From Echinarachnius parma (lineage: Eukaryota; Echinodermata; Echinoidea; Clypeasteroida; Echinarachniidae), in NCBI GenBank assembly GCA_037951105.1, contig JBAMJV010007773.1, positions 49,572-113,571 on the forward strand: a DNA stretch of 64,000 nt, in the 5' to 3' direction. The stretch's first letter is position 1. Each line of letters starts with the position of its first letter. The position numbers and the translations under genes are program-made. Positions 25,879 through 63,276 of the stretch are shown piece by piece. The notes under the pieces are model-generated. The model saw only the letters and a program-made list of their open reading frames with translations. It had not been told where the DNA came from and did no database searches.

Positions 25879-25947
25879 ATGACCATGATAATGAATATCA
25901 ATATTTCCAGTTTTGTGTTATTGGCAGTCTGGATCATGACGATATAC
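25879..25947 (+). CDS. RTK exon 1: signal peptide
   Basis: ATG at 25879 opens 23 codons ([20 protein letters not shown], then TIY) that form a typical secretory signal, ending in phase 0 at a GTAAGT donor (25948). This phase joins the next exon exactly. A possible 5'-UTR acceptor (CATTGCAG) lies just upstream, at about 25851. Two further ATGs at codons 3 and 5 could also start. Confidence 0.8.
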
Positions 25948-28900
25948 GTAAGTAAAATATACTTATTTTGTCAGAACATTTCTCCTACATCGTATTGAAC
26001 CTTCAATTAAAATTCATAATTTATAATTGATATTCAACAACAGAATACACAAGAAAATTCTGAAGGAAAAGCTACTTTTATATAATACAAAAGAAATAAA
26101 AACTAATAATACAAAAAGCAAAGAAGATACTATTACAACATATGGTATGTAAATTGATATTGAATAAGTAATATCAAATTTGAATTTGATAGAAATAATA
26201 AGCCTGATTTGGAACACCATCTCTAAGCGTACCACTGTCATTGATAGGCTACGCCCATATTATAGGAATGATTCCCAAAACCCTTCTCCTTCATTGGGAG
26301 AATTTCATTTTTTGGTAGCCATTATGCGCACAATGTTCAGGGATATGAATCACAATCATGTATACAGGCTAGATTCACACCGCTGGGCCACCATGTTTTG
26401 TAGAGAGCAGCAAACGAGGACACCAGTACCTGCGCCGGTGCAGTGCCCACGACATTCGTACTGGAAGATAAAGACCTGGAACAGTTCCTTAGAAGAACTA
26501 TGACGATGGTCCAAGAATGAAGAATGTGTTGTTTCTTCAAAATGATATTAGATAATATAAAAGCATTGCTCTAATTGAATTTCCATTTGGTTCTGATTCA
26601 AACTATAATTCAGCATTATGCATGTTATAAATAACCATTTTATATATAGTTGTTATATTGCTGCAGTAGTAATGCCACATGTCACTTTTTTTTATTCGTT
26701 TTATATCTGACAGCAGGACCTCGGTGTTCTATTCATCTTGTATTTGCTTCTTTTGAATTGAAATTTAAATGTGTAGCTTTTTTCCCCCCCCCCCCAATTG
26801 ACTATTTTATCCAGGATATAAGACAAGGAACGTGTCAAACATTACCGGGACCATCAGACTATTCTGTTGTGCGAGGAGACGACGGGACATTAAGCTGCAG
26901 TGTGACAGGAGTTACATATCCCTTCTTCATTTGGTCTGATATTTCTGTAAACCCTGCTGTGAATATATACAATGGTGGCACCAAGTTTACAGCAGATAGC
27001 AAGTATGATAACTTTGATGTAAATGAGCCAGGAGACAATTCATCATCTCTAACTATTATCAGTGCTGCACTGGAAGATGAAGGAACATACACCTGTGCAG
27101 CGCAAATTGTTGGTTCATCGAATTCAGCCAGTTTTACTGTAGATGGTGAGGAAACTTAAATGGCTTGACCATTGGCAAGTCATGATACAAGACCGTATTA
27201 TTTTGTATGTCATGTAAATACAATTAGGGGAGACAGTTCATCGAGAATTGAAAAAAAAACAGTTAAAGAGAAAACATAATGATTTTTTTTTTACTGATGG
27301 GATTTGCTAGGTTATCACTTGCCCCATACATTTGGGTGCTTTTGAAAAAAAATGATTGTTAAATTATGACCAGTTTACTGTACAATGAGACTACTTGAAT
27401 CACCATACAAAATAATTTCATGCACTGTACCTACCAAACATGCACAATTGATTGCACATGTATTGACGTTTGTTTAAGAGAATTTTTGATGTATGATGAA
27501 TTTGAATATGCTACATTCAAAGTATATTAAATTTGATGGGAAAGGGTCATTCATCTTGTATATTATAAAATGTTCTTTGTAATGTGCAAGCTTATTTGAA
27601 GTACATTCACTATTTCCCTTGCATTCCATTTTCTTCAATGTTGATACAGTTCAGGGAACCCTTGCTGATGTAGCAGGCCTCCCTAGTGATCTGGTTGCTG
27701 GTCAGGACTACACTGCACAATGCAGTGTCACTGGGAGCAGACCACAGGTTGTTATTGAGTGGTACATTAACAACATCCAGCAGACAACAGGGATATCAGA
27801 AACCTCTGCAGCTAACCCATCAGATGCCGATCTGTCGGATACAACCAGTGATCTCACAGTCACCGTTACAAAAGGCTTCAATGCTGCAGCCATCACCTGC
27901 CGGGTGTCTGGGTATCGGGCTCTAAGTCTTCAGAATCAGATCCAAGAAAGCACAACGACCTTGAATGTGAACTGTGAGAAAGTATATATTTTAACCATGA
28001 AATCAATGATTATAACTGTACACACCATATCCAATAGTAATCCTTTACACCTAACACTAACTGTAAACAGTAGGCCTATGACTCTCTCTTGCATAATAAA
28101 GAACAAATCATAATAAGATGGTTAGGTAAACATGGCCAATGCTGTATATTTATGACATGTTATATGTTATATGTTTTCATTTATGTAATATTATTATTGA
28201 GTATTGAACAAAATCAATGAAAGTAGTATTATCAAATGTAAACGGATTACATTCATGATATGTGCCTATAGACAGATTCAAAAGAATCGTAGTTCACATG
28301 AAAATGTCCATCTCATATGCAATAATCATGTATGAAGTAGGCCTATGTACTTTATAAATGATGTATCCAAATTCGGTTCATGCATGTCTTTCCCCTTCAA
28401 CTTTCTAAATTGACAAATTTCTGTCCCACTTTAATTACACCGGCGAGAATTAAAAAGACAAACACTATCTAATTACGTTTAGCAGTATTATCACGTTGTT
28501 ATTATTTTCTGTAATTGATAGATCTCCCAAATCATCCAGGCTCCCTGATTGGGACGTTTGTAACGCTATCACAATAATAGCCATAATTAGTATGGTCAAA
28601 ATTGTCAACCAAATGAAGATCCATTATATATCCCCTAATTGTTTATTCAAACATGGATGTGTTTGACATTGGAGATCCACCCAGCTCTGTGACTGTGGCG
28701 TTCAACGCAGACGGAACAGAGGTATCCTGTGAAGTGGACGATGCCAATCCATCAGTCACGTACTACATCTACAAGAATGACAGCCTCATTCACCGAGGCA
28801 CAACAGATTCCTTTTCTATATCCACACTGGATGCTACCGACAAGTTCACATGTGTTGCTGGAAACTACCTTGGAAATGTAACACATGGGTATTACACGCC

Positions 28901-31900
28901 TCCTCCAAGTAAGTGACCAGCATTGTTATTTCGAAGGGTTATTTTAAAGTGATCTAGTAACAATGTACAGATCCATAAAACTCAAACGGTTCTCAAAATA
29001 TCTACTCGTTGTATTCGTGTTACCAAATAACTAACCGTATTACAAATATGGATTAGTTTTCGGTTTTCAAGTAAAGATATAAAACGATAGAAATGTTTGG
29101 ATTTTAAAGGCTCTCATGGAGACTTTCAAATGTGTACAAAGTCAGTGCAATGAGATACAATACAACATACAGTAGTTACTTTTATAACGATAATACACAA
29201 TGTGTCATAGCGCTTTACACACACAAATGAAAAATACGTATTCATATATTGCACATAGCGAATATCGATTTCCATTTTCGCTCTTTACTCGGTAATATGA
29301 TATTCATTTAACATGGACTGACCACACTTTTCTCAATGGGCATAACATTATACTATACAGATACAAATATTATTATACACATTTCATTAACCCTTCGACA
29401 GTTGGGTACAGGAGTCCAGAGTTGGGGGTTCAGAGGGAGGAGCGCTCGGAAGGTTTTTATTTGTTATCATTATTGAATATACAGCTAGTTTCTTCTGCTA
29501 AATATGCTTAATTTTTGTATTCTTCGTGCAGTATATCACGGACGAATCTAGTTATTTAGCAATAGATGTTCTCAATTTATATGCCTATACAGATACCACG
29601 CCGTTCCCGAAAAGTAAGTTACTTTTTAGAGTAACATGTAGATTATTTATCATCACGATACCCCGACAAATCTTACAATTAGGGTCATATACGATTTCGA
29701 ATGCTTGCTTTGCAAAAAGCGGTATGTTATTATCATGATGATTTTATATTCTCACGAATAATAATTTTTAATTTTCAATATAACAACACATAAATCTATA
29801 ACTTAGTACAAGTTCAGTTATTATTGTTTGCCCACCAGTAATATGTTGCCTTTTCTATTAGTTAGATTTTGCGTGTTGTTTTTTTCGCTTTTTCCCTGAT
29901 TTTCACTTGATGTTTTACAAATGTTTCTCATTTCTTAGACAATACTCAAAACAAAAATAAGACACATGAACATACATTTAACTATTCTGACACTTATAAG
30001 CTATATAAGTTATGTTTATAAGCTATAGTATAAAACAAAACAAACAAAACAAACTTATGCAAAATGTATATATTTCTAAATAAAATTTATTATCTTGAAC
30101 GCCTTTTATACAATTCCAATGGTCAGTATTTTCTCTCTCATTCCCACTATAGCAACATTACTTATTACTACTTCAGGTACTCCAACGACGGTTCCAAATC
30201 CAACTTCAGGTAAAAGCGATTTATATTTGTATTATAAGTTATCATTATTTTAAGTTCTGTTTTAATTCCGTCGATGTTGTTATAACTATGTCTATTACTC
30301 AATGAGCATATAATTTAAGAACTAGTAAAATTTCATATTTATCTTCATTTCATTTGCATTTGCATTTGCATTGTAGTGATATTCAATAACTCATTGCATT
30401 GACTATGTACATGATTGTGACTATCCAGTGGATTGTAACAAATCTGAACACTTCAATCGTAAATACTTTTTTAACGAAGGGGAAATTCGAAAAACCGAAA
30501 CCGGTCCCAAGTTTTGTATGTATGATAGAACCACTAGATCGAGCTCCGAGTAAGTTTTGAGGAGTTTGATAATATTACTAGATCACTTTAACTACCCTAA
30601 CCTACCCTAACACTTACGAAGAAAACACAAGCTTAATTTAAAGTCAATATGATCATGATAATAATTGGACTTAAATAATACAGACTATAATGTTAATACA
30701 GTTGTATTTATATAATCTAAAGTCAAACAAACCAACGTATGAAATAGATATGCATTTTAAAATAAAATTGATCATCTTGAACGCCTCTCTTACAATTTCA
30801 ATGATCAGTTCGTGTCATCTCATTCCCACTATAGCAACATTACTTATTACTACTTCAGGGAGTCCAACAATCGTAAATTGCATACATAGAGAAAGTGCCC
30901 AAGTGCCCATAGAGAAATAAGTGGACAACAATATAAATCGATTAATAGCATTATATTATACCAGTTCACTTTATTGTAATGATCTTTTGTACAGGAGTTA
31001 ATTGACCATTTATCATCTAAACAAAAGTTTTATGAATACAAAAAGGATATTTTGCGTGTTAAACATTTCACGCATGAATGAACTTATTATTTTCGCAATA
31101 AGTAATGAGTTACTTTCATTCTTTAGGAGACGGTCTAAGCTTAGAGGCACCAGCTGTTATAGCTATTCTAGTCATTCTTTTGGTCACATCGCTGGCTGCA
31201 AACATCGTCCTGGTGATTTTACTGAGAAGGGAAAGATCAAGTAAGTGTAAACAACATTACATCACTTATTTTGTAAACTGCATTTGAGAGGTGTAAGCCA
31301 TTATTGAGTCGTATAGTCCTTCATCATATTCAAACAAATTATATCAACAATGGTCTGTACATATTCCCTTCACATTTTAAGATAGTCGTATAACATGCAA
31401 TATTGGAAAGGGCTGAACGTCAAACATGACGTTATCTACATTGTGTGTTTGTTAAATCATTAAAAGCTATGTATTTGTATAACTGTTTGTAATGTTTTCT
31501 CTTAATTCATGCACGCTGACGCAGAATCGAATGATGCAAATAAATCAAGGTATGTCAATCATCATATTGTACATTGTAAAGTATTACTAAATACAGTACA
31601 TATACTTGATACTGAACTGAATCATTCTTAAAATTTAGATAACAATTTACATGAAATATCAATATACATACACCGTTATGCTAGAATGACATCCGGCAAT
31701 TATTATACAACATTATGGCAGAACGACCTCATATAAATGTATCTACTTATTTGAAACTAAGAATTTCCTTCATGCTAGAATTATATCCGGCAATAATTAC
31801 CAAACATTTGCTTTAAACTTATAATTTCCCCTCACGTTTTACATTTTTGGGTCCAATTATTGGGGAGGGGGGCAGATGCCCTCCCTGTACCACCTACGTA

Positions 31901-34900
31901 GTTAGCCAATGTTTACCTTTATTGTTTTTCAAGGAGTGAGGTGAACAATGACGGAGCAGACGACAACAAACCTCATGAGATGATTGCACCTAGGACAAGA
32001 AGTAAGTGGTTTTGTTCATAGCTTTTACAAACTGTAACATTTTTAAGTGATTCTTTTAGATAGGGTGTCTAATTTTTATTCAAGAAAGTTGTATAATAAC
32101 GAAAGAAAGTGAATCCTTTTAATAGAATTCAAAGCATTAGACAATTAATTTTAATTGAGAAGTCTTACAAATAAATTTATACATCACTTAATATATTTAT
32201 ATTGCTGACCAAAATTACGTTTTAATATAAATTTGATATGATTGATTTCCCACAAATTCAGCTAACGCAACATACACTGCCCTAAACATTGGATTCAAAG
32301 GAGATGGTTCCGTGTCGATACCTGCTGCTGATGTATCATTCTTCACTAGACTGGGTCCCATTGGGAGTGGGGAGTTCGGTGATGTGTGGAAAGGGGAACT
32401 TAATTCACCCCAAGGGGGTACTGCAGTGGCTATCCGGCAGATACGAGGTGGGAAAATTGTAACATGAATTGTTATTATAATTTATGTTATCTATAAAGTG
32501 ATCCTATGTTATGAAAATTATCCAACAAAAAACATTTGCCCATAATATCCATAGCACGTTTTATGTTATATTTGATAACCAATGGATAGCAGATCTCCGC
32601 TTGTTTTGTTTATTTTCGCATCGATGAATTGTCTGCAAATGACTAGGTGTGTTTCCTGTGCAGAATCCATATGATAAACAGGACTTCTAAGTTCTTAGTA
32701 TCATAGACTCCCAGTCAACGATGTACACTGTAAATACAATCAATACAACATATGAAGAGCACTTAACCATTCCACTCGGGATATGGAACCCTGTGTTTCA
32801 ATCTTATTCTAGCTTACTATATGTATACATTATATCCTCATTCATAACAACATATGAGGATATTATAGATGCATTTGTGAGCTATATAATATGTTGCGCA
32901 ATGCTAGTCTTCCGTAACAAAATTACTTAAAAGTTTTCAAGTTTAGGTTTGGTCATGTTATTCTAAATGGATAGTGTGTTGTTAAGATAATACTGTATCA
33001 TATTATTTGAAATCGTCGAAGATATTTCTTTTGAAAAGACGGAAAAATATTACATATATTCGTTATGTTTCCGCTGAATTCGACATTCCTAATGCAAAGA
33101 AATGCCAACAAATGTCATCGTACGGGAACAAGAATTGTATACATATAATAAGCCACCAAACAATTGTTCTGCATTGTAACAATTTAAGTAGACAGTGACA
33201 TGTGCAAATAAGATGATTTGCAATATCCATGATATCTATCCGGATTTCCGTGTTTTGTGAAATAACTAGTGATTGTTTTCATTAATATATATACAGGAAA
33301 TGCATACTTTGACATTTTCCTTAGTCATATTCATTACCAATATGGAAATCTAGCTTTATATGGATAAAACAAATTACTTTAGCTATTCAAATGATATGTA
33401 CTTCCTCATTATGTTAGTATTGCATACTGTGTACACGATGATGTGCATTTACAAATGAAACGGTATATTCCGATGTTCATTGTATCCCTTAACAGGGGCG
33501 GATCTAGCTTTTGGCTAAGGGGGGGGGGGGGGGGTTTGACCCAATGACGATCTAGCTTTTTGCTAAGGGAGGGCGCGAAGCGGCGAATTTTTTTTGCTAT
33601 TTTGAACCCCCGTAAGTGATTTTTTTTTTCACTTTTGTTTCACTTTTTTTCACTGATACATTTTCACTTGGCAGCCTAAGGGGGGGGGGGGGGGGGGGGT
33701 TAAACCACCTAACCCCCCCCCCCCCCCCCCCCCCTAGATCCGCCACTGCTTAAAATCAAACCAAATTAAACGAATGCCCCTTTTCCCTATAATAATGGCT
33801 ACAACTGGCGACACGAAATAGAAAATTACATATAAACATAATGTAATTGTCTGCAGGTAAAAAAAAAATAAAAATGCGTAGGCTACTTTAATATGATATG
33901 ATCATATCACAATATCACCGTAGTAACATTATAGTTCATATGTATATATATATATACATGTATAATTTTTTTTTTTTAAATTTCATGTTGCTTCTGATAT
34001 ATTGTTGATGTAAAAAAGGAATATTTATGTTGCTGGTCCTTCTGTTTGGAATAATGTGCCAGTAGACTTGAGGCTTGCCTCCCACAGTAAAAATATTGAA
34101 GAGAAATTAGAAGACATTGTTGTTTTTAAATTATAGATTGGAGAGGTTGTAAAACGCATTGACGAGTGAGTAATTTAAAATGTGCGATAGCAGAGTGAAT
34201 TACTGTTATTATTGAGCAAACATAATACCTGTAGTATTTTAAAATTTTTACTTCGATTATTATTATGTTTTATTTCCAATTGTGATATAAACTAATCCAG
34301 GCAATACGCAAGAGTCATCGATCATCTCGAGCGCTGACCAAACCCTCAGCAGTTTGTCTGGCCATCCCAATGTTGTGGCATGTATTGGATACTGCTCTGA
34401 GCAACGTAAGTTTTATTTGCGATTTCTTGTTACTAATTAGTCTTCAAACCAGAGTAACATAATAACAAATAAATGATTTGTCAGGAACTGTATAAACAAG
34501 TATGTACAGTATAACAGAGGGACACATCCCTCTATACGTTGATATATAGACTCCATGCCCCATAAGTCTCATATTGTTATTATTTAACGAGATAGTAATT
34601 TGTAATGTGCGATAGCAGAATAAAATACTGTTATTATTGAACATAAATCACTTTGATTATAATAATGTTTTATTTCCAATTTTGATTTACACTAATTCAG
34701 ACAATACGCGAGAGTCATCGCCCATCTCGAGTGCTGTCCAAACCCTCATCAGTTTGACTGGACATCCCAATATTGTGGCATGTATTGGATACTGCCCCGA
34801 ACAACGTAAGTTTTTTTTGTGCGATTTCTTATTTCTAATCATTTTAAATCCAGAGTACATACAAAATTTGTCATCAAAAGAGGAACACATCCCTCTATAC

Positions 34901-37900
34901 GTACATAGACTCCAGGCCCAAAAATCTCATATTTTCATACTTTTGTCCTCAATACAAGATCCACATGGCGCCCACGGCCAGAGTACGTAAATATTTACTC
35001 AATATAATCAAGTAATGAAATGAATAATAGTAACAAATGTTTTTTTAAATGAACACATCTCTGCATGGAGACGCCAGTACAAATAGGTCTCTTGCATCTT
35101 TTTGTACTCTTACTAATCCACAGGAAGCATTTTGTACGAGTTTGTATCCGGGGGATCCTTGCTCACCCACCTGCATACCAATGGCGCCCACGGCCAGCGT
35201 ACATACGGGAACATTAAGGGAAGCAAGAGTCGGCTGGATGAGACATCTCTCCTCAAGTTTGCCTGCCAGGTTGCCAATGGCATGGACTTTCTCTCATCTA
35301 GAAAGGTAAGTGGCATTTGTTATCATCAAGGTATCTTCAAATACAGTATACGCTCTGACGATACAACTTTTGCTAAATTATTTTGGAACATCCTAGCTTC
35401 ATAAGTTTTGAAAAAGGTGTTAAAATAACCAATTTAACATGTAAATATAATCTTTTCTTTTAGTTTACTATTGAAATATGAACTAACTTAGGCTTGAGTC
35501 ATGCATTTTGGGATATATGTGTGAGTGTGAGTGTTTGTAAATGGTTTTTTCAGTGTTTGTATATGTAAGTGTCAAAGTGTTTGTGTTGCATATTCCAATT
35601 AAATGTTATTATTTTCTAGTAATCAGAAAAAAGGTTAATGAATATAAAATGTTTAAGTTTTATTTTAATTTCCCCTCTATCAGATCACTCATGGCTCGCT
35701 GTGTGCTCACAACATTCTGATGACTGAGAAGAAAGAGTGCAAGATGTCTGACTACGGCCTGGTCGCCATGACAACGGGCCAGAAACCGGTAGGTTCCGTA
35801 CATACTATTAATACGATACGAATATGATTTCTAAAACATATGTAATTATTTAGTTATTTCTGCACCTTGCATAAATTTGTGACAATCACTTACCCTCGGT
35901 ACGTCTTACTTGGTTTTCATTCCTCTGAAGATTGTGGTATCCATCCGCCATGTCCTCCTTAATAGAGAGCAAGGAATGAAATACATAACTTCATGTAGTA
36001 GGATCTTGTCATCTTGCCCACCCTACCACCCCAACACCATCACTTGGTTTTTACCCAAGGTGTACCATTACATCGTGAGCGAAGAGTATGGCCCACAATT
36101 CGATACAAATGGTATGAATGGCTTTGAGCCCATTACAACAGAGTATGTTATAGAAGTGAACTTTATACAGGACGACGACAACGGAAGAAAACACAACGTC
36201 TCAGTGACCTCCTTGTCCAAAACTGTGTTCCTTGATTATTCTGTATGATTGTGTTAAAGGGGTAGTTTAGTTTTGGTAGAGAGGGCGCTGCACATCACAA
36301 TTTGTTTGTGAGGTAATGAAAAACTGAGTGTCGAATTTGAGAGAACATGCAATTTTAATGGCAGAATAAACTTTATTTGGTCAAAATCGACCCAGAAACG
36401 GCTGAAATATCAATAAATATATCTGAATTTATAATTATTTGGGGCCCAAATAATTATCTGATTTAAAAAAAAAAAAAAAAAAAAATGCTTGCACTTTTTC
36501 AAAAATGTTCAAAAGCATTTTTTAAATAGTTGTTGATGATCTCTCTATTTAATCATTATTTCAATAAAACATCACATGCATAATTTTGTAAAAATGGTTG
36601 AAACCGATGCCTTTTTAGAAAGCGCCCTCTTGTGTTTTAATGGCTCTTTTTGAATGATAACGGGCTTTTTACTTAGTCGTTTGTAATTTTGTATACCTTT
36701 CGAGCATGGTGGAGTTATAAATATTAGTTTATAAATGTTACTGTCCAGGTTTTGGTTACTAAAATTCGGCCTTACCAAAACTGTACTACCCCTTTAATTT
36801 ACAGAAACTAACGCGGTGGTCCTCGCCGGAGACTCTGCTGAACGGCGTGTGCACAGCAGAGAGTGATGTCTGGTCCCTTGGCATCGTTCTCTGGGAGATT
36901 GTTACTCTTGGTGAGTCCACACTTCAACTTAACTACCAAAATGCTCTAGATAGACAAAGGGAGTGGATATTGTACAATAGTTTGTTGGGTTATACAGTGT
37001 CCTATGTAGTTGAAGTGACCATTGTATCGCCATTTAATTATCTCTTTATTCTATTGGAAATTGCATAGTTACATGGGTCCCTATTAAATGACGGAAGACG
37101 AAGTACTAGTTCACTGTGAAGGGGCTAGCATCGTAATGTTAAATTTAAGCCAGTTGAGTTTTTTTCTGAGCTAAGTGGAAATGACATAATACAAACAAAA
37201 ACATGACACAATATATCACTGTGTAAGACGAAAAAAGGTATCCTTAAAATATCGTTAAAAGTACGTTATCCTTATAAATTCAATTATTGCTTATTACTAT
37301 GTAACATGTTTAATATATTGTTATTTTTTGCATTATTATTATAGTTATTGTCTCTAACAAGTACTATTTAATTACAATTCCCATAATTGCAGGTGCCAAG
37401 CCGTACCCCGGCATGAACTTCATCGCAGTCAAGCAGGAGGTAACCAATGGTTACAAAATGCCACGCCCCCGTCACTGTGGACAACCACTGTAAGACTTGT
37501 GATTGGCTTACATTTTATTATTCTGTTATCATCATCAAAAGTACATTGTAAACATGGTAAAATAAATGTGTAAGCCCCAAGTAAGTTTGGTTTATTTGAC
37601 AAAGTTAATGGAGCACTTACATTATGTAGAAATTATTTAGTTAACAATCTAAGAATAAATACCTGTTCAAATTCAGGCTACAATGTTGTAATAATCTCAT
37701 CGTTATCACATGTTTTAGTAGTACATTTTTATTCCGAGTTAGAGTTAATTTCATTAATATTTGTTATCATAATGAGGACATTCAGTTAATTTGAAAATTA
37801 GTTTGAATGTTTAATTTTGAATTTCATAAATATTCTGTTCATTTAGGTATGACATAATGAGCGAGTGCTGGGAGAACGCTCCAACAAGACGGCCGACATT

Positions 37901-38726
37901 CAACCAGACACTGCGGAAACTTGAACAGCTCTTGGAGCAAACACAGGTAAAAGTTGTACTTGTTTTTTGTTTGTTTATTTCCAAAATCAATCGAAAACAT
38001 TTGCAAGACTACATGCAAGCGATTGAATGGCCTAATTCAGCCATATTGCACGAATAAGTATTGTTAATCCTGTGGATACGAAATTCAATACATTTAAAAA
38101 CACATCAATACATATAACTTTTAAAGAACATTACAACACAATCATGTGATGTTTAAATACTGTTTGAACAAAATATATTTCGTGAGCCTTTTTTGCTGCT
38201 TTGTTTATTTCCGAAATCACAACAATAAATACAACAATAAAGGGCTACGCGGGATTGACCCAATTCAGCAGAATTTAAAAAGACAAAACCGTTGTTCTTC
38301 CTTGGGGTCCCACAAATAGATACAGTATACAAGTATACGTCTATAAACAATGATTGATAGGGAAAGCAATATAGAAAGGGGAGAAAGCGAAATAGAGAAA
38401 TTATAATTTCCTCATGGTTACAGTTTAATATCCATACATACTTGCAAGGACGTATCTAATTTGGCACAATCACCTTTTCCCAACGGACCATTGTGTATAC
38501 ATTATATCCTTGCCTTCTTGTAATGCATGACTACTACTTGTAATATAAAGTTGAAGTCGAGAAATACAACATGATATTGAATGCACTATTGCAAATAATG
38601 TGCTAATACAAATATGCAAACCACACATGTCTTATTGCATTTTTCTGTTTTCTTTGGCAGGGCTACATATCTATTGATGAACTCGACACGGAACTGTACC
38701 ATGAATACTACGACCCCGTGGAATAA
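25879..38726 (+). CDS. Ig-domain receptor tyrosine kinase, predicted pseudokinase (whole gene)
   Basis: Sixteen exons, listed separately, join in phase from ATG to TAA (2145 coding bases, 714 aa). Order: signal peptide 1-23, three Ig-like domains about 24-133, 134-241 and 242-319, a Thr/Pro stalk, a membrane helix near 340-364, a short juxtamembrane segment and a kinase domain about 425-705. The glycine loop GSGEFGDV (434-441) is normal, but the ATP-anchoring Lys of the VAIK motif is Arg (VAIR, 458), the HRD loop reads HGS (560-562) so the catalytic Asp is missing, and DFG is DYG (580-582). Asn567 of the loop is kept. From family knowledge such a domain is unlikely to transfer phosphate and would signal as a scaffold or partner. 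[16 protein letters not shown] and the RRPTF motif show the C-lobe is otherwise complete. The subfamily is unclear; the C-lobe looks generally RTK-like. Confidence 0.85.
26815..27145 (+). CDS. RTK exon 2: Ig-like domain 1
   Basis: Acceptor TTTTATCCAG after a C-run; donor GTGAGG. Phase 0 in, 1 out. V-set-like features: Cys in TLSCSV, a Trp in FFIWSD, and [10 protein letters not shown] carrying the second Cys. Potential N-glycosylation at NSS. Confidence 0.92.
27650..27973 (+). CDS. RTK exon 3: Ig-like domain 2
   Basis: Acceptor TTGATACAG, donor GTGAGA; phase 1-1. Contains AQCSVTG, a tryptophan in IEWYI and the second cysteine in AITCRVSG, the pattern of a C2/I-set Ig domain. Confidence 0.92.
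28675..28908 (+). CDS. RTK exon 4: Ig-like domain 3
   Basis: Acceptor CATTGGAG, donor GTAAGTG; phase 1-1. Shorter Ig-like fold with VSCEVDD and [10 protein letters not shown] cysteine motifs but no clear Trp; N-glycosylation sites at NDS and NVT. The acceptor has a weak pyrimidine tract. Confidence 0.85.
29593..29613 (+). CDS. Possible RTK microexon, 21 bases
   Basis: CTATACAG acceptor and GTAAGTT donor bracket 21 bases that keep phase 1-1 and would add NTTPFPK to the stalk. Plausible optional exon; no transcript proof. Confidence 0.35.
30177..30209 (+). CDS. RTK microexon, Thr/Pro stalk
   Basis: CTACTTCAG acceptor and GTAAAAG donor bracket 33 bases, phase 1-1, encoding [10 protein letters not shown] between split codons. 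A short mucin-like, probably O-glycosylated spacer before the membrane. Confidence 0.6.
30366..30592. mobile_element. Partial MITE family 2 in an RTK intron
   Basis: Shares AACTCATTGCATTGAC, GAACACTTCAATCGTAAATA and GAAATTCGAAAAACCGAAAC with the copy at 2699; the right end reads ATTACTAGATCACTTTA. Confidence 0.7.
30757..30870 (+). repeat. Duplicate of the stalk microexon region
   Basis: Repeats 30077-30190 closely (ATCTTGAACGCCT, CTATAGCAACATTACTTATT), including the ACTACTTCAG acceptor, followed by a changed sequence (GGAGTCCAACAATC) without a good donor. Either a dying duplicate or an unused alternative exon. Confidence 0.75.
31127..31240 (+). CDS. RTK exon: transmembrane segment
   Basis: Acceptor TTCTTTAG, donor GTAAGTG; phase 1-1. 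After GDGLSLEAP comes a helix of about 24 apolar residues ([20 protein letters not shown]) ended by LRRER, the positive-inside stop-transfer signal of a type I receptor. Confidence 0.92.
31525..31549 (+). CDS. RTK exon: juxtamembrane, 25 bases
   Basis: Acceptor GCTGACGCAG, donor GTATGT; phase 1 in, 2 out; encodes KSNDANKS. The same microexon is recognisable in the decayed copy at 59821. Confidence 0.8.
31934..32001 (+). CDS. RTK exon: juxtamembrane
   Basis: Acceptor TTTTTCAAG, donor GTAAGTG; phase 2 in, 1 out. Acidic then basic residues ([16 protein letters not shown], then APRTR). No tyrosine in this piece. Confidence 0.85.
32262..32447 (+). CDS. RTK exon: kinase N-lobe, glycine loop, VAIR
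   Basis: Acceptor CAAATTCAG, donor GTGGGA (weak); phase 1-1. Carries ATYTAL, then the glycine-rich loop [11 protein letters not shown] and [10 protein letters not shown], where the invariant Lys of beta-3 is replaced by Arg. The Tyr at 404 lies in a juxtamembrane position. Confidence 0.92.
33493..33748. mobile_element. hAT-like short element with G/C runs, in an RTK intron
   Basis: Inverted ends CAGGGGCGGATCTAG and CTAGATCCGCCACTG, flanked by CTTAA on both sides. Long G runs (33521-33534, 33682-33700) and a C run (33713-33734) lie inside. Non-coding. Confidence 0.85.
34301..34405 (+). CDS. RTK exon 10a: helix-C region, copy 1
   Basis: Acceptor ACTAATCCAG, donor GTAAGTT; 105 bases, phase 1-1. 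Encodes [20 protein letters not shown] followed by [11 protein letters not shown]. By alignment with FGFR-type kinases the position of the helix-C Glu appears to be Ala, in keeping with a pseudokinase (inference). Confidence 0.88.
34701..34805 (+). CDS. RTK exon 10b: helix-C region, duplicate
   Basis: Same length, phase and splice words as 10a (acceptor ACTAATTCAG, donor GTAAGTT), encoding [20 protein letters not shown] then [11 protein letters not shown]. The duplication includes about 110 bases of upstream intron (GTGCGATAGCAGA, TTTTATTTCCAATT). Either copy fits the frame; including both would duplicate helix C, so the two are probably used as alternatives. Confidence 0.75.
34960..34990 (+). 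pseudogene. Relic of the next kinase exon
   Basis: ATGGCGCCCACGGCCAG followed by AGTACG matches 35181-35204 of the following exon (ATGGCGCCCACGGCCAG then CGTAC). It suggests the duplication that made exon 10b once also covered part of this exon. Confidence 0.6.
35124..35305 (+). CDS. RTK exon: hinge and helices D-E
   Basis: Acceptor AATCCACAG, donor GTAAGTG; phase 1 in, 0 out. [15 protein letters not shown] is the hinge region, followed by a glycine/lysine-rich insert ([18 protein letters not shown]), probably the kinase insert, then [17 protein letters not shown] of helix E. Confidence 0.93.
35684..35788 (+). CDS. RTK exon: catalytic loop (HGS) and DYG
   Basis: Acceptor CTCTATCAG, donor GTAGGT; phase 0-0. 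The loop reads [13 protein letters not shown] where active kinases have HRDLAARN: Arg to Gly, Asp to Ser, and Asn kept. The metal-binding motif is DYG instead of DFG. The activation segment is short and has no clear tyrosine before the next exon. Confidence 0.93.
35910..36248 (+). other. Unassigned 112-codon open frame in an intron
   Basis: Open frame of 112 codons between two kinase exons, ending 6 bases before the MITE at 36254. It could be read as an exon from the CTCTGAAG acceptor-like word at about 35930, but kinase exons on both sides join without it. No domain recognised; composition is more protein-like than other random frames nearby. Possibly a captured gene fragment. Confidence 0.3.
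36254..36797 (+). mobile_element. Complete TTAA-flanked MITE (family 1)
   Basis: TTAA at 36254-36257 and 36794-36797; inverted ends AAAGGGGTAGTTTAGTTTTG and AAACTGTACTACCCCTTT. The best-preserved copy, 544 bp. Seven bases separate it from the kinase exon at 36805, so its right end supplies the pyrimidine tract of that acceptor. TTAA targets are typical of piggyBac-like transposases; no transposase is seen. Confidence 0.92.
36805..36910 (+). CDS. RTK exon: APE region and helix F
   Basis: Acceptor CTTTAATTTACAG, donor GTGAGT; phase 0 in, 1 out. [11 protein letters not shown] stands where active RTKs have a WMAPE motif; [17 protein letters not shown] is a normal helix F. Confidence 0.93.
37393..37489 (+). 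CDS. RTK exon: helices F-G
   Basis: Acceptor CATAATTGCAG, donor GTAAGA; phase 1 in, 2 out. [16 protein letters not shown] and [11 protein letters not shown] match the helix G region of RTKs. Confidence 0.92.
37847..37946 (+). CDS. RTK exon: helices H-I
   Basis: Acceptor GTTCATTTAG, donor GTAAAAG; phase 2 in, 0 out. [18 protein letters not shown] is the classic CW-x6-RP motif, followed by a helix ending EQLLEQTQ. Confidence 0.93.
38661..38726 (+). CDS. RTK last exon: C-terminal tail and stop
   Basis: Acceptor TCTTTGGCAG; 21 codons and TAA at 38724. [20 protein letters not shown] has three tyrosines in an acidic setting, possible phosphorylation sites for a partner kinase. Confidence 0.9.
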   Translation, partial: GYISIDELDTELYHEYYDPVE

Positions 38727-40417
38727 TTTACCGGACTTGAAGTCGCCTGCCCACAGGTGACCGGCCGAGGGTGTACAGCAACGGCAACTCGGCCATGGTA
38801 TTTCACCTCAGCGGCATGAACCACTGATCTTTTCTTGCTAAGGTCTAGATGAAGTATGGAGTACTCACCTCTATAATATCATGGTTGACGCCGCAACAAA
38901 TGAATGTTCTGAAAAACCCAACTTATTTTTGCTAATGTGTTATGTATTTTAATTTGTATACGTGTGATTATACTCAGTCACTTTATCTGTATGGTTAACA
39001 CGATACATGTAATCCTTCTGAGACACGGTGGTAGGAGAGCGGATCTCACTTTAGTCAGTCAATAACTTGTCCAGAATTATATATTGAGATCAGTGGCCGG
39101 AGTTATCATGCCTGAAGCAACGAGAAATAGTCTTATGTGAGCCATTATCAAACTGTACAAAAAAGTGTTCCGAAAGTTATATTGAGAGTACAATCGTATT
39201 CCGATATCATTGTAAATTACTTCTGAATGGGTGTTCTAGTTTCCGTAATAACATGTTTAATTAGCGAAAACAGGTAAACAGTTCTGGAACGCACTTCATT
39301 CAGTCATAGATTTCTCTAAAATAAGGGAGATATTAGAAACATCAATTCCTACTTCATTTTCCTTGTCGTTACCATAAGCTTTATAACCAGGTACAAGATA
39401 AATGTGAAAGCTCCAAATGGTTATCTTTGCATTGTGCAAAGAAAATAGAATTAGTTTAAAGGCAGGATATATCAGACCATTGTTTCAGAAAATATTGTTT
39501 GCTTTACAATATAATTACAAGGTAACATTAATTATTATGTAAAACAATCGATTTTTAATATTATTTGCAATTTGTAATAATCAATGACGCATTATCATTA
39601 TATTTTGTTGAAATATCATTATTAACATTATCTATATATGTCAGTGTATGCAGTTATGTACTATATGTTAGAATACAAATAATACACGGTGTAGAGTGTG
39701 CGCATGCGCACAGCTAATATAGCCGAGAGTCGATGCATTTACATGACGGCACGATAACAAGACCGTAGTATTATTTGTTTTATAAAACAGGCCCAACCAC
39801 GGATTGTTTTATTTTGCTATATTATTGAAAACAGGCTCTCCACAATTAGTAACCCAGTCTATCTACTCTCTGGAGTGTGAATTTATTAGGAATTTACCAA
39901 ATTAATCATCACTAGAGTGCACTCGCTTCACTGAATTTGACTCTGCAGCTCAGCAGATCAAATGCAGTCGCCGAAAATCCGAAAATTTTCCCGTTAAAAG
40001 TGAAGAAATATCAAAGAATTGTATGCATTTCCATTCCAAAACTTCCCAATATCAAACGACATACCATATAATTTACGAATCCACTAAGATTTATTTACTA
40101 CAGAACACATTATTTACAGAACGAAGCATTTTCCATCTTCTTTTTTTATCACTTTCGCAAGTTTGACTTCGTAGAACTATGTAAACAAGCATTGTGACGT
40201 CCCAGCCGTGCAAATATCGCGCAACAAAAAGTGACAACACATGTGTGTTACGCTTTTTCTTGTTTGTTTGTTGAATTTTAATGTATAGTCACGTGACTGG
40301 ATTTAACCAATCACGTTACTGAATTTACCAGAGCCGTTTTATAATTTGTAATAGTTCATACAAGTTATATGGCACAAATCGTCGTACTAAAATACAAAAA
40401 ATATTGTCTTATGTTAT
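38727..40417. other. RTK 3' UTR and intergenic
   Basis: The 3' UTR begins at 38727; I did not find a convincing AATAAA signal and cannot place its end. No other feature recognised. Confidence 0.5.
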
Positions 40418-40644
40418 GTAGCAGTCACACCGCCAAACCGAATCCAAACCGACACGAGACCGAATAATTCGGGGACGTTTCGGAGACGTTCGGGGTGCTA
40501 GCGGTTTGGTGTCGGAGTAGTATCGGAATTGTCGGTCTCTTTTGTTGTGACTGCTAACCCCAGTTCGCGCTCTTGTCGGTGCCCGATAAAGTGGAAGTTC
40601 GGTCTGGTTTCGGTTTGGATTCGGTTTGGCGGTGTGACTGCTAC
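40418..40644. mobile_element. 227-bp MITE with 35-bp perfect inverted ends
   Basis: GTAGCAGTCACACCGCCAAA at 40418 continues as 35 bases exactly mirrored at 40610-40644. The inside is GC-richer (TTCGGGGACG, GGTGTCGGAG). No coding capacity. Confidence 0.93.
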
Positions 40645-40845
40645 ATTAGGCTTATTAGAGAATGCTATGAAAATGCTTCATGATATAACATATTTAATTT
40701 TATTTGTTGTATCTATCCGAATGTTCATATTTTCAATTTCATGAACTGACTTCATATATTTGATATACGAATGCACTTCATACTTTATTTAGAAGATGAC
40801 AGTGATTACATATACTTTCACTTTTCGATTATGGTTTATGTTCAC

Positions 40846-58697: not shown

Positions 58698-58748
58698 GTA
58701 ATACAATTATTGATTCATTGATTAATTTATTTGTTTAATTATATGGAG

Positions 58749-58862
58749 ATGGTCTAACTTCCGAAGCAAAAGCTGGTTTCGTCTATTCTATCCCTTCTAT
58801 TGGCTACATCACTGGCTGCAAACGTCTCCCTGGTGAGTTTTACTGAGAAGAAAGGGGTTCAA
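58749..58862 (+). pseudogene. Decayed membrane exon
   Basis: GATGGTCTAACTTCCGAAGC and ACTGGCTGCAAACGTCTCCC match 31129-31240, but one extra base upstream of GGCTGCAAAC shifts the frame into a stop (TTTTACTGA). The TTTAG acceptor is replaced by ATATGGAG. Confidence 0.85.
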
Positions 58863-59219
58863 GTAAGTTTAGAATTAATATATTGGTTTTGGTCAAATAT
58901 AATTGAATAACTTACATTGTCATTAAAAAATAACTGTTATAATTATATGCATGAATGATCGAATAAGATAATACAAACGGCTAATAACAGGGCCCTTTTC
59001 ATTCGAAACGTACCAGTTAATACAGGGAGAGCGCTATCCAAAGACATCAACTTTCAACCATATTTTAATATAAACATTGAATGTATAGATTGATCATCAT
59101 AAACGATATAAAAAATGTCAGTACCTTTTCACAAATGTGTACGATTTATAAAAAAATCCTAAAATTATTGAATAAAGGTTCTTGTCCAACTTTTATTTGC
59201 AAGCAGATACATGAATTAA

Positions 59220-59393
59220 TATTTGGAGGTGTTTCTGAACTGACTTTGGTAAAATAAATTCGAATCTGCTTAGAATTGTGCTCTCTTGGAAAACTATACT
59301 TATTCTGCTAAATACTTATTATGTTCATTAAATCACAAAAGGAATCTATTGAAGCGCCCTTTAAATAAAAACTGGACGATCCCTTTAAACACA
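59220..59393 (+). mobile_element. Fragment of a family 1-like MITE
   Basis: GAAGCGCCCTTTAAATAAAA followed by CTGGACGATCCCTTTAAA resembles the right end of family 1; the left half is missing. Confidence 0.45.
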
Positions 59394-59821
59394 TCCTATG
59401 TAATTTGTTTAAATTATTTCGCTTAAAGGAAAAAAGTAAACATTGCCTATTCATAATCTCTTTCAGTTCAAGTCAGTAGTATTATACATTAAACAGGAGA
59501 TCTAAGGGAGTTTTTATCAAGTTGTGGTCAAACAGAAGTAAAACGTCTCAGTCATCGTTATACAAACTTGAATAGTAGAAAAACATACACACGGCTTGGT
59601 TGAAGGACTGTTTTCATTTAAAACAGGTGTTAACACAAAACTGCAAGTCATATTTACATAGATATTGGAAATAATCAAACCTCATACTTGTGGTCAACCT
59701 GGTTATTGGAAAACATTGTCCCTATTAAATATTATTTAAACATTTGTATATTTTAGTTTTAAATCATTTTAAATCGATGTATTTGTGTAATTGTACTTTC
59801 TCTTAAATCACGCTGCTACAG

Positions 59822-59847
59822 GAAACGAATGATGACAGAAAATCTAG
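59822..59847 (+). pseudogene. Decayed juxtamembrane microexon
   Basis: GAAACGAATGATGACAGAAA followed by ATCTAG and GTATGT matches the 25-base exon at 31525 (ESNDANKS became ETNDDRKS). Confidence 0.75.
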
Positions 59848-60339
59848 GTATGTAAAATCATCAGATCGTTATATTGTGAAAATATAAATAAATACAGTAT
59901 ATATAATGGCAACTTAATCTTTATTAAAATTTAGATCATGATTCATGCTAGGATTAAATAACATTACATTCTTTGTAATCGACATTTTTTAGATACATTT
60001 TTAAAAATAATGTAGCCCCTCATTGAACATATTGGAACGATTTGCCGTATTTTCCCCTCCAGGATTATCCCTCGAACGGGGTTGATCGATAAAACTATCG
60101 TTTTGTGCATCGGGGTCAGTAGGGCAGATAAACTTACCTTAGCCCAACTCGCGTGGTGATGTTTTGGATCAGGCAATAATCAACATTCTGGCAAGACTAC
60201 CTCATATTACATTTTACACTAGGAATTTTCCCTTATGATCTGTAATTTGGTATAGCCTACAATTATTTAAAAGGGGGATGGGACGTGCCCTCCGCGATAG
60301 CTACGCCGATTTCTACTCCTTTGTTTGTTTTTTCCAGGG

Positions 60340-60408
60340 GTGAGTGAACACTGACGAGGCAGACGACATCAAACTTTTATGAGATTGATTGCACCTGGGG
60401 ACGAGATG
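60340..60408 (+). pseudogene. Decayed juxtamembrane exon
   Basis: GGGTGAGTGAACACTGACGA and GATTGCACCTGGGGACGAGA match 31934-32001; a lost base gives a stop after four codons. The GTAAGTGG donor is kept. Confidence 0.8.
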
Positions 60409-60655
60409 TAAGTGGTTTTATTTAAGCATTTACAATTTTGTATCTTTGCAAGTGATTTTTCTAGAAAAGGGTGTCTAATTTTGATTTAAGAAAGTTGAAA
60501 AGGAAAATGAATCCTTACAATAAGAAAGCATTAAAAAGTGATTATAATTGAAAATGTTTGCCAGAAGTATTGTATTTATTCATCAAAATGTATATACATT
60601 CATATTGCTGACAAAAATTGTCATAATATAAATTATTTTTTCTCATCAATGCAGC

Positions 60656-60830
60656 TGATGTCAACATACACTGCCATTCAACCTGGCTTCAAAGGAGATG
60701 GATCCGTGTCGATACCTGCTGCTGATGTCTCATTCTTGACCATATTGGTCCGATCGGGGAGCGGGGAGTTCGGTGACGTGTGGAAAGGGGGAACATAATT
60801 CACCCCAAGGGCGTACAGCAATAGCTATCC
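60656..60830 (+). pseudogene. Decayed glycine-loop exon
   Basis: In one frame it gives TALN-equivalent [20 protein letters not shown] and [13 protein letters not shown] before a stop; the following AIAIQQIR lies in another frame. At least two frame changes relative to 32262-32447. Confidence 0.88.
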
Positions 60831-60899
60831 AGCAGATACGAGTGGGAACATATTAGTTTGAATGAACTATTATTACTTTGTTGTTAAAACGTGATCTAT

Positions 60900-62160
60900 T
60901 AAATTCATAATTTTTTCCGAAAGTAGGATTTGAGTATTCAATCGTGTACCCAATATCATTGTAATTCACAATTGAATGATATATAATTTTATAGTTTCAC
61001 AGAAAAAGAATGACGTTTACCTAGTGAAAAAGAATACAAGTTACTGTCATATTTTACCATCCACTACCCATTAATTCTCACGACAATCGAAAGCGTTCCG
61101 GAACGCTTTTCAATTTAATCATGCAAATCTCCATATTAATATTAATATATCCAATATTTGACAAATCAAATCCCATTTTATTTATCTGATATACAATAAT
61201 CAAAACATCAGGTGTGAAAGCTCCACGTGATTGTTATTATAATACGATATCTACATGTAAATGACAAAGTTTATAGATCACTTTAGTAACAATATTATTT
61301 GGTACCAAAAAAGTGTACAGCATATCACTGTTCCCGAAAGTACATAAAATATATCATAGCACTCTTTAAAACTCATCCATGAATTGTCGCTGAAATTACA
61401 AGGGGTGATTTCTGAGCAGAAAAAAGGGGTTAAAAATTAGGTTTCTTAGTTGTCATTACCCTAGTAAACGCCGGATACCCAATATCAATCTGGTAGACGT
61501 AGAGCACTGAACCATTTCACTCGATCGAAAGCATTTCAGTCAGTCATATGTTATGCTCCAGAGTGTTAGGGAACCTTGTGTTTCAATCTTGTTCCAGCAA
61601 CCTATTTGTACACAATGTGTACCCTCATTCATAATAAGACATCATTTAAAAATATCTATCTATCTATCTATTTATATACGTAGGAGGTAATATTTTGAGG
61701 ATACTAAAAGTTTGCATTTGGAAACTGCATAATTTTTTGCGCAAGGTTAGTCTCTCGTAACAAAATAAAATTGTATGTAATTTGGTCAGTGGATTTCTAA
61801 TTAACTTTATCTTTAGTACATAGCGACATTTCGAATAATCTGAAGAAAAATAAAACAGAATTGTTTTTTAAGAATTGTTTTTTAAAATTACTTTAAAGAT
61901 TTGCTTTTGAAAAGAAATTAAATGTAAACTTAAATTTTGTGAAAAAGTGTTCCCTACAATTACAAATTTAAATTACTATCGTACAATTATGATAGGTGTT
62001 ATTAGGAATACAAATTATTTCCTCAAAGTGTTACAGTTAAACGTACACAATAGTATGTGAACAAATGAATGAAAAGCAATTTGACCCGGATTTCCTATTT
62101 TGTCACAGAAAGATTGATTTTACTAATACAGAAAAGAATACTACCTTGACATCTTCCTTT
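60900..62160. other. Intron-equivalent of the decayed RTK copy
   Basis: Matches the intact gene's intron only in patches (TGTGTTTCAATCTTGTTCCA at 61587 against 32795). A (TATC)n stretch lies at 61653-61672. Nothing else recognised. Confidence 0.5.
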
Positions 62161-62162
62161 TA

Positions 62163-62172
62163 CTGGTGTAGC

Positions 62173-62204
<32 letters not shown>

Positions 62205-62413
62205 TCCTGTGCCCTTAGAACTCCCCCCCCCCCCCCCCCCCCCCCCCCCGTTAACCATTAGTTTTAAATTGGGGGATTTGAACAGCTTAAATCTAAAAGC
62301 TTCCGGATGTTCCGCCCCCGCAACTCCTGTCAGAAGCCCAAAGACCATGCCCAAAACGGCTCTGCTTGCAGATCGGAGCCCCCTTTTCAAAGTTTCCTGG
62401 CTACACCACTGCT
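62163..62413. mobile_element. hAT-like short element with G and C runs
   Basis: Ends CTGGTGTAGCGAGG and CTGGCTACACCACTG are imperfect inverted repeats; inside are a G run (62175-62203) and a C run (62223-62249). The Gly/Pro open frames here are artefacts of the runs. Confidence 0.7.
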
Positions 62414-63015
62414 TCCTTTATTATGATTTTACCCTCTGAAATAGTTACCATAGTGACATTCGACCAGTATACATGTTACATGAATTTGAATAACTTTAGA
62501 AGTAGAATGTACTTCCTTATGGTGTTAGTAACACCATACTTTGCACACGATGATGTGCATGTACGCATTAAAAACGTCAAGCAATATTATATTGATGTTG
62601 TTCATATTTAGTTAGACAAGTTATTTATCCTTTGAAATTTTTAACTTTTGAAAAAACATCAATAATGTGTGCAATTTAGCCCCGTTAAAAGAAATTTATA
62701 TCAAATAAGACGTTTTGTTTCAAGGAAGATTGTTGTTTCAATGCATTTTGTATACATCATGTAACTTATTTGTTAGAAGTGTGAGGTTGCAGCAAGAGAG
62801 AAATTTAAATTCTGTCTTGACTCCTCTGAATCGAATCGCAGGGAAAGCTAAATATCAAATATTATAGTTGTTGCCTAGTGTCAGTGTTATGTATTTGATG
62901 TCGATAAAGAGTTTTTAAAGATTAAACAGACATATTGATATTGATATTGAGTTGCTCTAATGACTTTGATGATGAAAATGTATTATCTCTTTATTTGCTA
63001 TAATCATATATTCAG

Positions 63016-63121
63016 GCAATAAGCAAGAGTCATCGACCATCTCGAGTGCTGTCCAAACCCTCAGCAGTTTGACTGGACATCCCAATGTTGTGGCATGTAT
63101 TGGATACTGCCCCTGAGCAAC
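63016..63121 (+). pseudogene. Decayed helix-C exon
   Basis: 106 bases instead of 105: an extra C in TGCCCCTGAGC makes a TGA. TTCAG acceptor and GTAAGC donor are kept. It shares GTGCTGTCC and TTGACTGGACAT with exon 10b but GCAATA and GTTGTGGCATG with exon 10a. Confidence 0.88.
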
Positions 63122-63276
63122 GTAAGCTGTTGGGTGGAATATTCAATGATATAGCGTGGTCGGAATCATGTGGGGCTCACATAAGTGGGTAGGGGGGTGG
63201 GGGACATACCTTATATTGTTCTTTTGTTTATTAAAAGTCTCCCCTTTTGTTTCTTTCATTGAATGTCCTTTACATA

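What the first reader, a model, noticed from the sequence alone, without database searches (positions are those of the whole stretch)
25879..38726. Ig-domain receptor kinase that has lost its catalytic residues
Seen: a complete 16-exon frame with a good glycine loop but VAIR for VAIK, HGS for HRD and DYG for DFG. Known: the VAIK Lys and HRD Asp are needed for phosphate transfer in protein kinases. Inferred: a membrane pseudokinase, with tail tyrosines that another kinase could modify. All other C-lobe motifs are kept and the frame is intact over 2145 bases, so it looks selected rather than dying.
Basis: partly seen in the sequence, partly recalled or inferred. Interest (0 to 1): 0.8.

Follow-up and report, generated by a model that had tools for sequence, protein, structure and literature searches.

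The report
Family of dead-kinase immunoglobulin receptors
This gene, from what looks like a sea urchin or sea cucumber relative, encodes a cell-surface receptor whose kinase part has lost its catalytic residues, and it belongs to a family of closely similar dead kinases joined to very different outer parts, which suggests a recognition system rather than a broken gene.

Summary
A 17-exon frame (25879-38726, +, 721 aa) encodes three Ig-like domains, a transmembrane helix, a tyrosine-kinase-like domain and a Tyr-rich tail. It has VAIR for VAIK, HGS for HRD, DYG for DFG; the alphaC Glu is also lost (Ala). Two in-frame alphaC exons lie in tandem.

It is not a lone gene. The genome search listed arrays of close copies. 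In the exon copies read, catalysis is never restored: beta3 Lys 0 of 21, HRD Asp 0 of 23 (Ser in all); catalytic-loop Asn and DFG Asp 23 of 23. For the same gene pairs dN/dS is 0.14-0.23 in the kinase (upper values with the loose alphaC exon) and 0.41-0.62 in the Ig part. The tail peptide is identical in 5 of 5 fetched paralogs. Outside one close subgroup the listed ectodomain matches are 29-55% identical, and DNA homology stops at the transmembrane exon in 3 of 3 informative loci.

Best reading: receptor pseudokinases with a conserved dead module and diversified Ig ectodomains, probably recognition receptors signalling through tail tyrosines modified by another kinase. Family facts are shown; ligand, partner and immune role are inferred.

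The parts
25879..25947 (+). exon 1, start codon and signal-peptide-like hydrophobic stretch
   Evidence: splice model; signal peptide judged by eye
26815..27145 (+). exon 2, Ig domain 1
   Evidence: Pfam Ig_3 7.5e-18; phase 0 to 1, GT-AG
27650..27973 (+). exon 3, Ig domain 2
   Evidence: Pfam C2-set_2 5.2e-10; splice sites
28675..28908 (+). exon 4, Ig-like domain 3 (weak)
   Evidence: Pfam Ig_2 8.5e-5, 23.2 bits, below the curated cut-off of 27
29593..29613 (+). exon 5, 21-nt stalk exon
30177..30209 (+). exon 6, 33-nt stalk exon
31127..31240 (+). exon 7, transmembrane helix (by eye); 5' limit of DNA homology with paralogs that have other ectodomains
31525..31549 (+). exon 8, juxtamembrane
31934..32001 (+). 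exon 9, juxtamembrane
32262..32447 (+). exon 10, glycine loop and VAIR (beta3 Lys replaced by Arg)
34301..34405 (+). exon 11a, alphaC region, Glu replaced by Ala
34701..34805 (+). exon 11b, tandem in-frame alternative of 11a, also without the alphaC Glu
35124..35305 (+). exon 12, hinge with Tyr at the gatekeeper place, alphaD-alphaE
35684..35788 (+). exon 13, HGS (HRD Asp replaced by Ser), Asn kept, DYG
36805..36910 (+). exon 14, end of short activation loop, SPE, alphaF
37393..37489 (+). exon 15, C-lobe
37847..37946 (+). exon 16, C-lobe end
38661..38726 (+). exon 17, tail [21 protein letters not shown] and stop
   Evidence: identical peptide in 5 of 5 fetched paralogs
58745..63126 (+). decayed partial copy of the TM-kinase half (exons 7, 9, 10, 11 recognised) with several frameshifts

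Best explanation
The gene encodes a single-pass Ig receptor with a catalytically dead tyrosine-kinase-like domain, one of a family of close copies in this echinoderm-like genome. SHOWN from DNA: an intact frame; loss of beta3 Lys, alphaC Glu and HRD Asp in every family exon copy read; retention of the glycine loop, catalytic-loop Asn and DFG Asp; purifying selection on the dead domain and an invariant tail; diversified ectodomains; a homology boundary at the TM exon. INFERRED: the Ig part binds variable ligands (microbial or self/non-self). The pseudokinase keeps a kinase fold, perhaps with bound nucleotide in the HER3/KSR2 manner (Arg paired with the DFG Asp, alphaC out), and works as an allosteric or docking partner. 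A separate active tyrosine kinase phosphorylates the tail tyrosines, which recruit SH2 proteins. Alternative alphaC exons 11a/11b tune the face that contacts the partner.
For: Frame and splice sites. Family census: beta3 position Arg 18 of 21 (four different Arg codons), Gln 3 of 21, Lys 0 of 21; HRD Asp position Ser 23 of 23; catalytic-loop Asn 23 of 23; DFG Asp 23 of 23; alphaC position Ala 14 of 16, Asp 2 of 16, Glu 0 of 16. dN/dS for the same gene pairs, kinase without exon 11: window-C7000A kinase 0.15 against ectodomain 0.62 with equal dS (0.167, 0.169); window-C12509 0.14 against 0.41, Fisher p 0.0006 and 0.003 on rounded counts. With exon 11b: 0.19 and 0.19, p 0.003 and 0.017; all window-C7000A kinase exons 0.21, p 0.005. 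Likelihood, three genes, no exon 11: 0.19 against 0.62. Tail peptide identical in 5 of 5 fetched paralogs with 1-4 silent differences each from the window. Ectodomain matches outside the close subgroup 29-55%. DNA homology begins at 31085-31125 in 3 of 3 informative loci, but runs from 26803 on in C7000A. C7000A has the compared exons open with splice sites. Precedents: Arg at beta3 with Asn and Asp kept in KSR2; ATP bound without the alphaC Glu in HER3 (PMC4718504, passages).
Against: No transcript, protein or ligand data. The immune or allorecognition role rests on the family pattern alone; ectodomain dN/dS is below 1 overall, so positive selection is not shown. Across all copies the per-exon likelihood omega is higher than in the three-gene test for three of four exons: exon 10 0.31, exon 11 0.57, exon 12 0.17, exon 13 0.39. 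Gene conversion among copies may distort dN/dS, and some copies may be alleles or decayed. ATP binding may fail, because the Arg that tyrosine kinases use in the catalytic loop is His here (by eye). No partner kinase was identified. The tail has no strict ITAM or ITIM (motifs recalled, read by eye).
Confidence: 0.6

Rival explanations
1. The same receptor pseudokinase family, but the ectodomain spread reflects relaxed constraint and array turnover (adhesion, gamete or tissue receptors), with no immune or allorecognition role.
For: Ectodomain dN/dS is 0.41-0.73 summed per gene pair and 0.48-0.90 per Ig exon by likelihood, not above 1; arrays and gene conversion alone can homogenise one half and leave the other to drift.
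Against: Homology stops sharply at the TM exon; dS is similar but dN differs two- to four-fold inside the same gene pairs; one locus has more Ig-like exons than the window gene (L054).
Confidence: 0.25
2. An atypical but active kinase: Arg at beta3 and the kept Asn and DFG Asp allow weak phosphotransfer.
For: KSR2 carries Arg at this place and was reported active; HER3 and JAK2 JH2 show weak activity without standard residues (PMC4718504, passages).
Against: The catalytic base Asp is Ser in 23 of 23 exon copies and alphaC Glu is absent in 16 of 16; KSR2 keeps its HRD Asp.
Confidence: 0.08
3. Allosteric inhibitor or decoy: the dead domain dimerises with an active receptor kinase and shuts it off.
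For: Dead domain held under selection; no activation-loop Tyr beyond the DYG (by eye) and a C-loop piece 8 residues shorter than in FGFR, VEGFR and EGFR.
Against: A pure decoy would not need the invariant Tyr-rich tail; no closely related active receptor appeared in the genome search, whose matches on other contigs were 31-41% identical.
Confidence: 0.15
4. A dying gene or pseudogene.
For: A neighbouring partial copy is frameshifted and one family exon copy holds a stop.
Against: The whole frame and all splice sites are intact; on the window gene's own branch about 7 amino-acid against 17 silent changes without exon 11 (binomial p 2e-6), 11 against 19 with exon 11b (p 5e-6).
Confidence: 0.03

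Closest known systems
HER3/ErbB3 and other receptor pseudokinases (PTK7/CCK4, RYK, EphB6; the last three recalled)
   Same: Receptor with dead tyrosine-kinase-like domain and tail tyrosines that a partner kinase could modify (recalled for HER3); like HER3 lacks the alphaC Glu and keeps catalytic-loop Asn and DFG Asp.
   Different: HER3 keeps the beta3 Lys and has no Ig ectodomain (recalled); those are single genes (recalled), this is an array family with diversified ectodomains.
KSR2 pseudokinase
   Same: Arg for the beta3 Lys with Asn and DFG Asp kept (PMC4718504, passages).
   Different: A scaffold of the Ras-Raf-MEK pathway that keeps the HRD Asp; here it is Ser.
JAK JH2 domains
   Same: Catalytic Asp replaced and a short activation loop (PMC4718504, passages); an HG-x-x-C-A resemblance in the catalytic loop is recalled.
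   Different: JH2 sits beside an active JH1 in one protein; here no second kinase domain exists in the model.
FGFR/VEGFR/KIT/TIE receptor kinases
   Same: Among the best sequence matches of the kinase domain in solved structures: TIE2 157.6, FGFR1 157.2, KIT 152.0 bits; the top row was an EGFR entry with two stretches of 107 bits each.
   Different: Active kinases; the domain here is about equally far from several of them, so the parent family is not resolved.
Diversified Ig-type recognition families (fish NITR, mammalian LILR, Hydractinia Alr; recalled)
   Same: Tandem arrays, variable Ig part, conserved membrane-cytoplasmic part.
   Different: Those use ITAM/ITIM-type tails or adaptors (recalled), not a kinase-like domain.

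Membership tests
Receptor tyrosine kinase (by descent) | Tyrosine-kinase-type domain behind a TM helix with Ig ectodomain | tested here: met
   PF07714 219.2 bits; best PDB matches are mostly RTKs; TM helix by eye
Receptor tyrosine kinase (active enzyme) | VAIK Lys, alphaC Glu, HRD Asp | tested here: not met
   R, A, S here; Lys 0 of 21, Glu 0 of 16, Asp 0 of 23 in the exon copies read
Pseudokinase (sequence definition) | Loss of one or more catalytic motifs in an otherwise complete kinase-like domain | tested here: met
Pseudokinase (biochemical definition) | No phosphotransfer measured | not testable with these tools
   needs assay
HER3-like nucleotide-binding pseudokinase | Glycine loop, catalytic-loop Asn and DFG Asp kept | tested here: met
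   Gly 21, 21 and 20 of 21; Asn 23 of 23; Asp 23 of 23
HER3-like nucleotide-binding pseudokinase | beta3 Lys kept | tested here: not met
   Arg here; Lys 0 of 21
HER3-like nucleotide-binding pseudokinase | ATP binding | not testable with these tools
   needs thermal shift or ITC
PTK7/CCK4 | Seven Ig domains (recalled) | tested here: not met
   three Ig-like domains only; orthology not tested by tree
Immune-type Ig receptor family | Tandem array with diversified ectodomain and conserved cytoplasmic part | tested here: met
Immune-type Ig receptor family | Positive selection in ligand-binding domains | tested here: inconclusive
   omega 0.48, 0.90, 0.77 for Ig1, Ig2, Ig3 in 5, 5 and 4 genes; no site test run
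Immune-type Ig receptor family | Expression in immune cells and ligand recognition | not testable with these tools
   no expression data
ITAM/ITIM receptor | Canonical ITAM or ITIM in the tail (motifs recalled) | tested here: not met
   tail read by eye: YISI and YHEYYDPV, no strict ITAM or ITIM

The most novel reading that the evidence does not exclude
A large germline repertoire of echinoderm recognition receptors in which interchangeable, diversified Ig ectodomain cassettes are joined at the transmembrane exon to one conserved dead-kinase and Tyr-tail module: an innate or allorecognition system that signals through a pseudokinase instead of ITAM/ITIM adaptors, with a second layer of choice from tandem alphaC exons.
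Probability: 0.35. Interest if true: 0.85.

Novelty: new variant of a known kind. Interest (0 to 1): 0.62.

Why it matters
Receptor pseudokinases are known mainly as single, old genes (recalled). Here a family of copies lacks the catalytic residues in every exon copy read while selection held the domain and tail, so it is a natural test of what a kinase domain is for when it is not an enzyme. The contrast of a fixed dead module with a variable Ig part offers a direct way to ask whether an invertebrate built a recognition repertoire on a pseudokinase.

Tried and rejected
Lone dying gene: rejected. Hidden active copy in the family: none among the exons read; the genome search scores only its best candidates. 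Exon choice that restores catalysis: both alphaC exons lack Glu. Upstream part of the same contig as further array: no match to the gene in L010-L014, which cover the contig outside the window. Ig clusters elsewhere (C4443) as members with another cytoplasmic part: 3.5 kb downstream of one of two clusters read, no TM or kinase exon recognised, undecided. Allelic contig of the window: a search with 1.7 kb of 3' flank found paralogous flanks in C11691 and C6623 (93%) and a repeat, no clear allele. Structure prediction was not run: the tool takes proteins read letter for letter from DNA and this one is spliced; I did not test that rule. No kinase-family tree was built, so the parent RTK family is open. 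Literature: seven full-text searches (listings seen, empty) listed no description of such a family; the library lacks most subscription papers, and the sea urchin kinome paper was seen only as a reference.

IQ-TREE omega was absent from its report file and was read from its log.
Full report
OBSERVATION. The spliced frame is real: 17 exons from 25879 to 38726 (+), every intron GT-AG, 2166 nt with stop, 721 aa. Pfam reports PK_Tyr_Ser-Thr (219.2 bits, residues 439-692) and Ig families over the first two Ig exons; the third is Ig-like but below the curated cut-off. The sequence shows GSGEFG (glycine loop intact), [18 protein letters not shown], and a tail [21 protein letters not shown]. The residue before the hinge Glu (gatekeeper) is Tyr. 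A C-loop piece of 74 residues aligns to 82 residues in FGFR, VEGFR and EGFR; in the EGFR alignment the gap of 8 lies in the activation loop. That loop has no Tyr beyond the DYG (by eye).

TWO ALPHA-C EXONS. Exon 11 occurs twice, 34301-34405 and 34701-34805, both 105 nt, phase 1 to 1, with AG and GT sites; either one, both or neither keeps the frame. The two lie in stretches of about 300 bp that are 78% identical, so a tandem duplication. The pair is also found in two paralogs with the same splice sites (C7000A and C6623-164k). Mutually exclusive use is an inference without RNA. Exon 11 is the least constrained kinase exon (omega 0.62 by counting, 0.57 by likelihood).

ORGANISM. The assembly has 1.2 Gb in 14,790 contigs. 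Its mitochondrial COI has AAA at an Asn place, ATA at Ile places and AGA at Ser places (the places judged by recall), and the large rRNA lies directly upstream on the same strand with a tRNA downstream, then an ND4L-like frame (by eye). By recall this is the echinoderm code and the sea urchin/sea cucumber gene order. The species is unknown.

THE FAMILY. A genome search with the kinase domain returned 127 scored matches: close ones on 15 contigs (arrays on C808, C6623, C6047, others mostly short contigs), and on other contigs (C4816, C5339, C1283, C596, C10017, C4240) only 31-41% identity. I read 21 exon-10 copies (those listed apart from the decayed window copy, two of them partial) and 23 exon-13 copies (19 listed plus 4 met in fetched loci), the window's own included. 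Beta3 position: Arg 18, Gln 3, Lys 0 of 21; the decayed window copy reads Gln. Arg is written by four codons, so it is held at the protein level. HRD Asp position: Ser in 23 of 23. Catalytic-loop Asn 23 of 23, DFG Asp 23 of 23, Tyr of DYG 22 of 23. AlphaC position: Ala 14, Asp 2, Glu 0 of 16. Gatekeeper Tyr 14 of 14. One of the 23 exon-13 copies holds a stop and is decayed. C8390 and C14103 look like alleles of each other, so gene number is below exon number; 12-20 genes is a rough guess, not a count. Loss of catalysis therefore appears older than the array.

SELECTION. For the same gene pairs, kinase exons (10, 12-15 or 12-16, without exon 11) and Ig exons have similar dS but different dN: window-C7000A kinase dS 0.167 dN 0.024 (0.15), ectodomain dS 0.169 dN 0.105 (0.62); window-C12509 kinase dS 0.324 dN 0.047 (0.14), ectodomain dS 0.269 dN 0.110 (0.41); C7000A-C12509 0.18 and 0.57. 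Fisher tests on rounded counts give p 0.0006 and 0.003 for the first two. With exon 11b the kinase values are 0.19, 0.19 and 0.23, and p 0.003 and 0.017; all window-C7000A kinase exons with 11a, 11b and 16 give 0.21, p 0.005. On the window gene's own branch about 7 amino-acid and 17 silent changes (p 2e-6), or 11 and 19 with exon 11b (p 5e-6). Likelihood omega: kinase of three genes without exon 11 0.19, ectodomain of the same genes 0.62; Ig1 0.48, Ig2 0.90, Ig3 0.77; across all copies exon 10 0.31, exon 11 0.57, exon 12 0.17, exon 13 0.39 (two exon-10 rows with insertions and the stop-bearing exon-13 row left out, identical rows dropped). By counting, earlier and with fewer copies: exon 10 0.16, 12 0.19, 13 0.29. 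Single short exons vary: exon 13 gives 1.12 for window-C7000A on 5 changes. Gene conversion can bias such values. C7000A is a second gene with the compared exons open and splice sites kept; its tail stop is displaced by five residues. The tail peptide is identical in 5 of 5 fetched paralogs although 1-4 silent differences separate each from the window.

DIVERSIFIED ECTODOMAINS AND A SHARP BOUNDARY. The ectodomain search listed 72 matches. Only C7000 (three copies) and C12509 have ectodomains close to the window's (71-88% identity); the rest are 29-55%, some of them on contigs without a family kinase match, and still more distant ectodomains would not be listed. Exons 10, 12 and 13 of the family are 77-98% identical to the window's. 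At DNA level the paralogs C6623-202k, C808-132k and C6047-40k match the window gene from 31085-31125 (the TM exon starts at 31127) onward through introns at 70-91%, and show nothing upstream over 4.5-5 kb read, while C7000A matches from 26803 on at 90-94% and C12509 matches the Ig exons at 81-85%. Of the separately fetched ectodomain stretches of other members, L054, L055 and L056 gave no DNA match and L057 one of 39 bases. Two more loci (L021, L025) show the same start but end about 280 bases upstream, so they are not informative. Modules also look reassorted: C808-77k has an exon 10 close to the window's (dS 0.043, dN 0.015), but Ig2 and Ig3 upstream of it, taken to be the same gene, are only 33 and 39% identical, and its exons 12 and 13 are less close (92 and 86%), so tracts are mosaic; C12509 has a close ectodomain but the most distant exon 10 by dS (0.54). 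One locus (C6623, L054) has three Ig1-like places, more Ig exons than the window gene.

MECHANISM. Shown: dead by sequence, kept by selection, fixed tail, variable Ig part. Inferred: (a) the fold may still hold a nucleotide, as KSR2 does with Arg at this place and HER3 does without the alphaC Glu, through Asn and DFG Asp (PMC4718504, passages); the JAK JH2 domains there also lack the catalytic Asp and have a short activation loop. (b) Another kinase phosphorylates the tail; the tail is docking. (c) The Ig part meets variable ligands. A recognition role is my preferred reading, with probability about 0.35 in its bold form.

KNOWN. The nearest kinases by sequence are TIE2, FGFR and KIT in the whole-domain search (the top row, an EGFR entry, sums two stretches of 107 bits) and FGFR and VEGFR for the C-loop piece (again with that EGFR entry on top): near-ties, so the parent family is not resolved. 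Seven full-text searches (listings only) showed no such family. In PMC6374515 (passages) Met-like receptors with plexin ectodomains are described in a starfish; a Sema-domain gene lies next to this gene in the window, but I found no link.

Noticed in passing
window 48269-52000 (+): Exons with Sema-domain similarity (Pfam Sema 2.6e-6 for 48269-49558, 0.03 for 50250-50522), a plexin-, semaphorin- or Met-like gene lying between the receptor and its decayed copy.
   Followed up: partly
window 7021-10809 (-) and 16157-17296 (-): A 1262-aa frame with a reverse-transcriptase-like YADD motif and a separate 379-aa frame: LINE-type retrotransposon pieces, judged by eye.
   Followed up: no
window 39698-40344: Interspersed repeat of about 647 bases with 37 further copies at 95-97% identity listed in the genome (a capped list).
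   Followed up: no
window 40416-40464 and 40598-40646: Inverted pair of 49 bases, 96% identical.
   Followed up: no
window 36254-36797: Intronic repeat with copies at 45190-46278, 1400-1846, 18382-18867 and 22069-22488.
   Followed up: no
window 34960-34988: A short stretch resembling part of exon 12 lies between exon 11b and exon 12 (seen by eye), perhaps a remnant of local duplication.
   Followed up: no
G000 C4443, 14373-15912 and 87615-89831: Ig clusters related to the ectodomain without a kinase match listed on that contig; they may be family members with another cytoplasmic part.
   Followed up: partly
G000 C10588, C3249 and C6623-140k exon 10: A subgroup has Gln instead of Arg at the beta3 position, as does the decayed window copy.
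   Followed up: no
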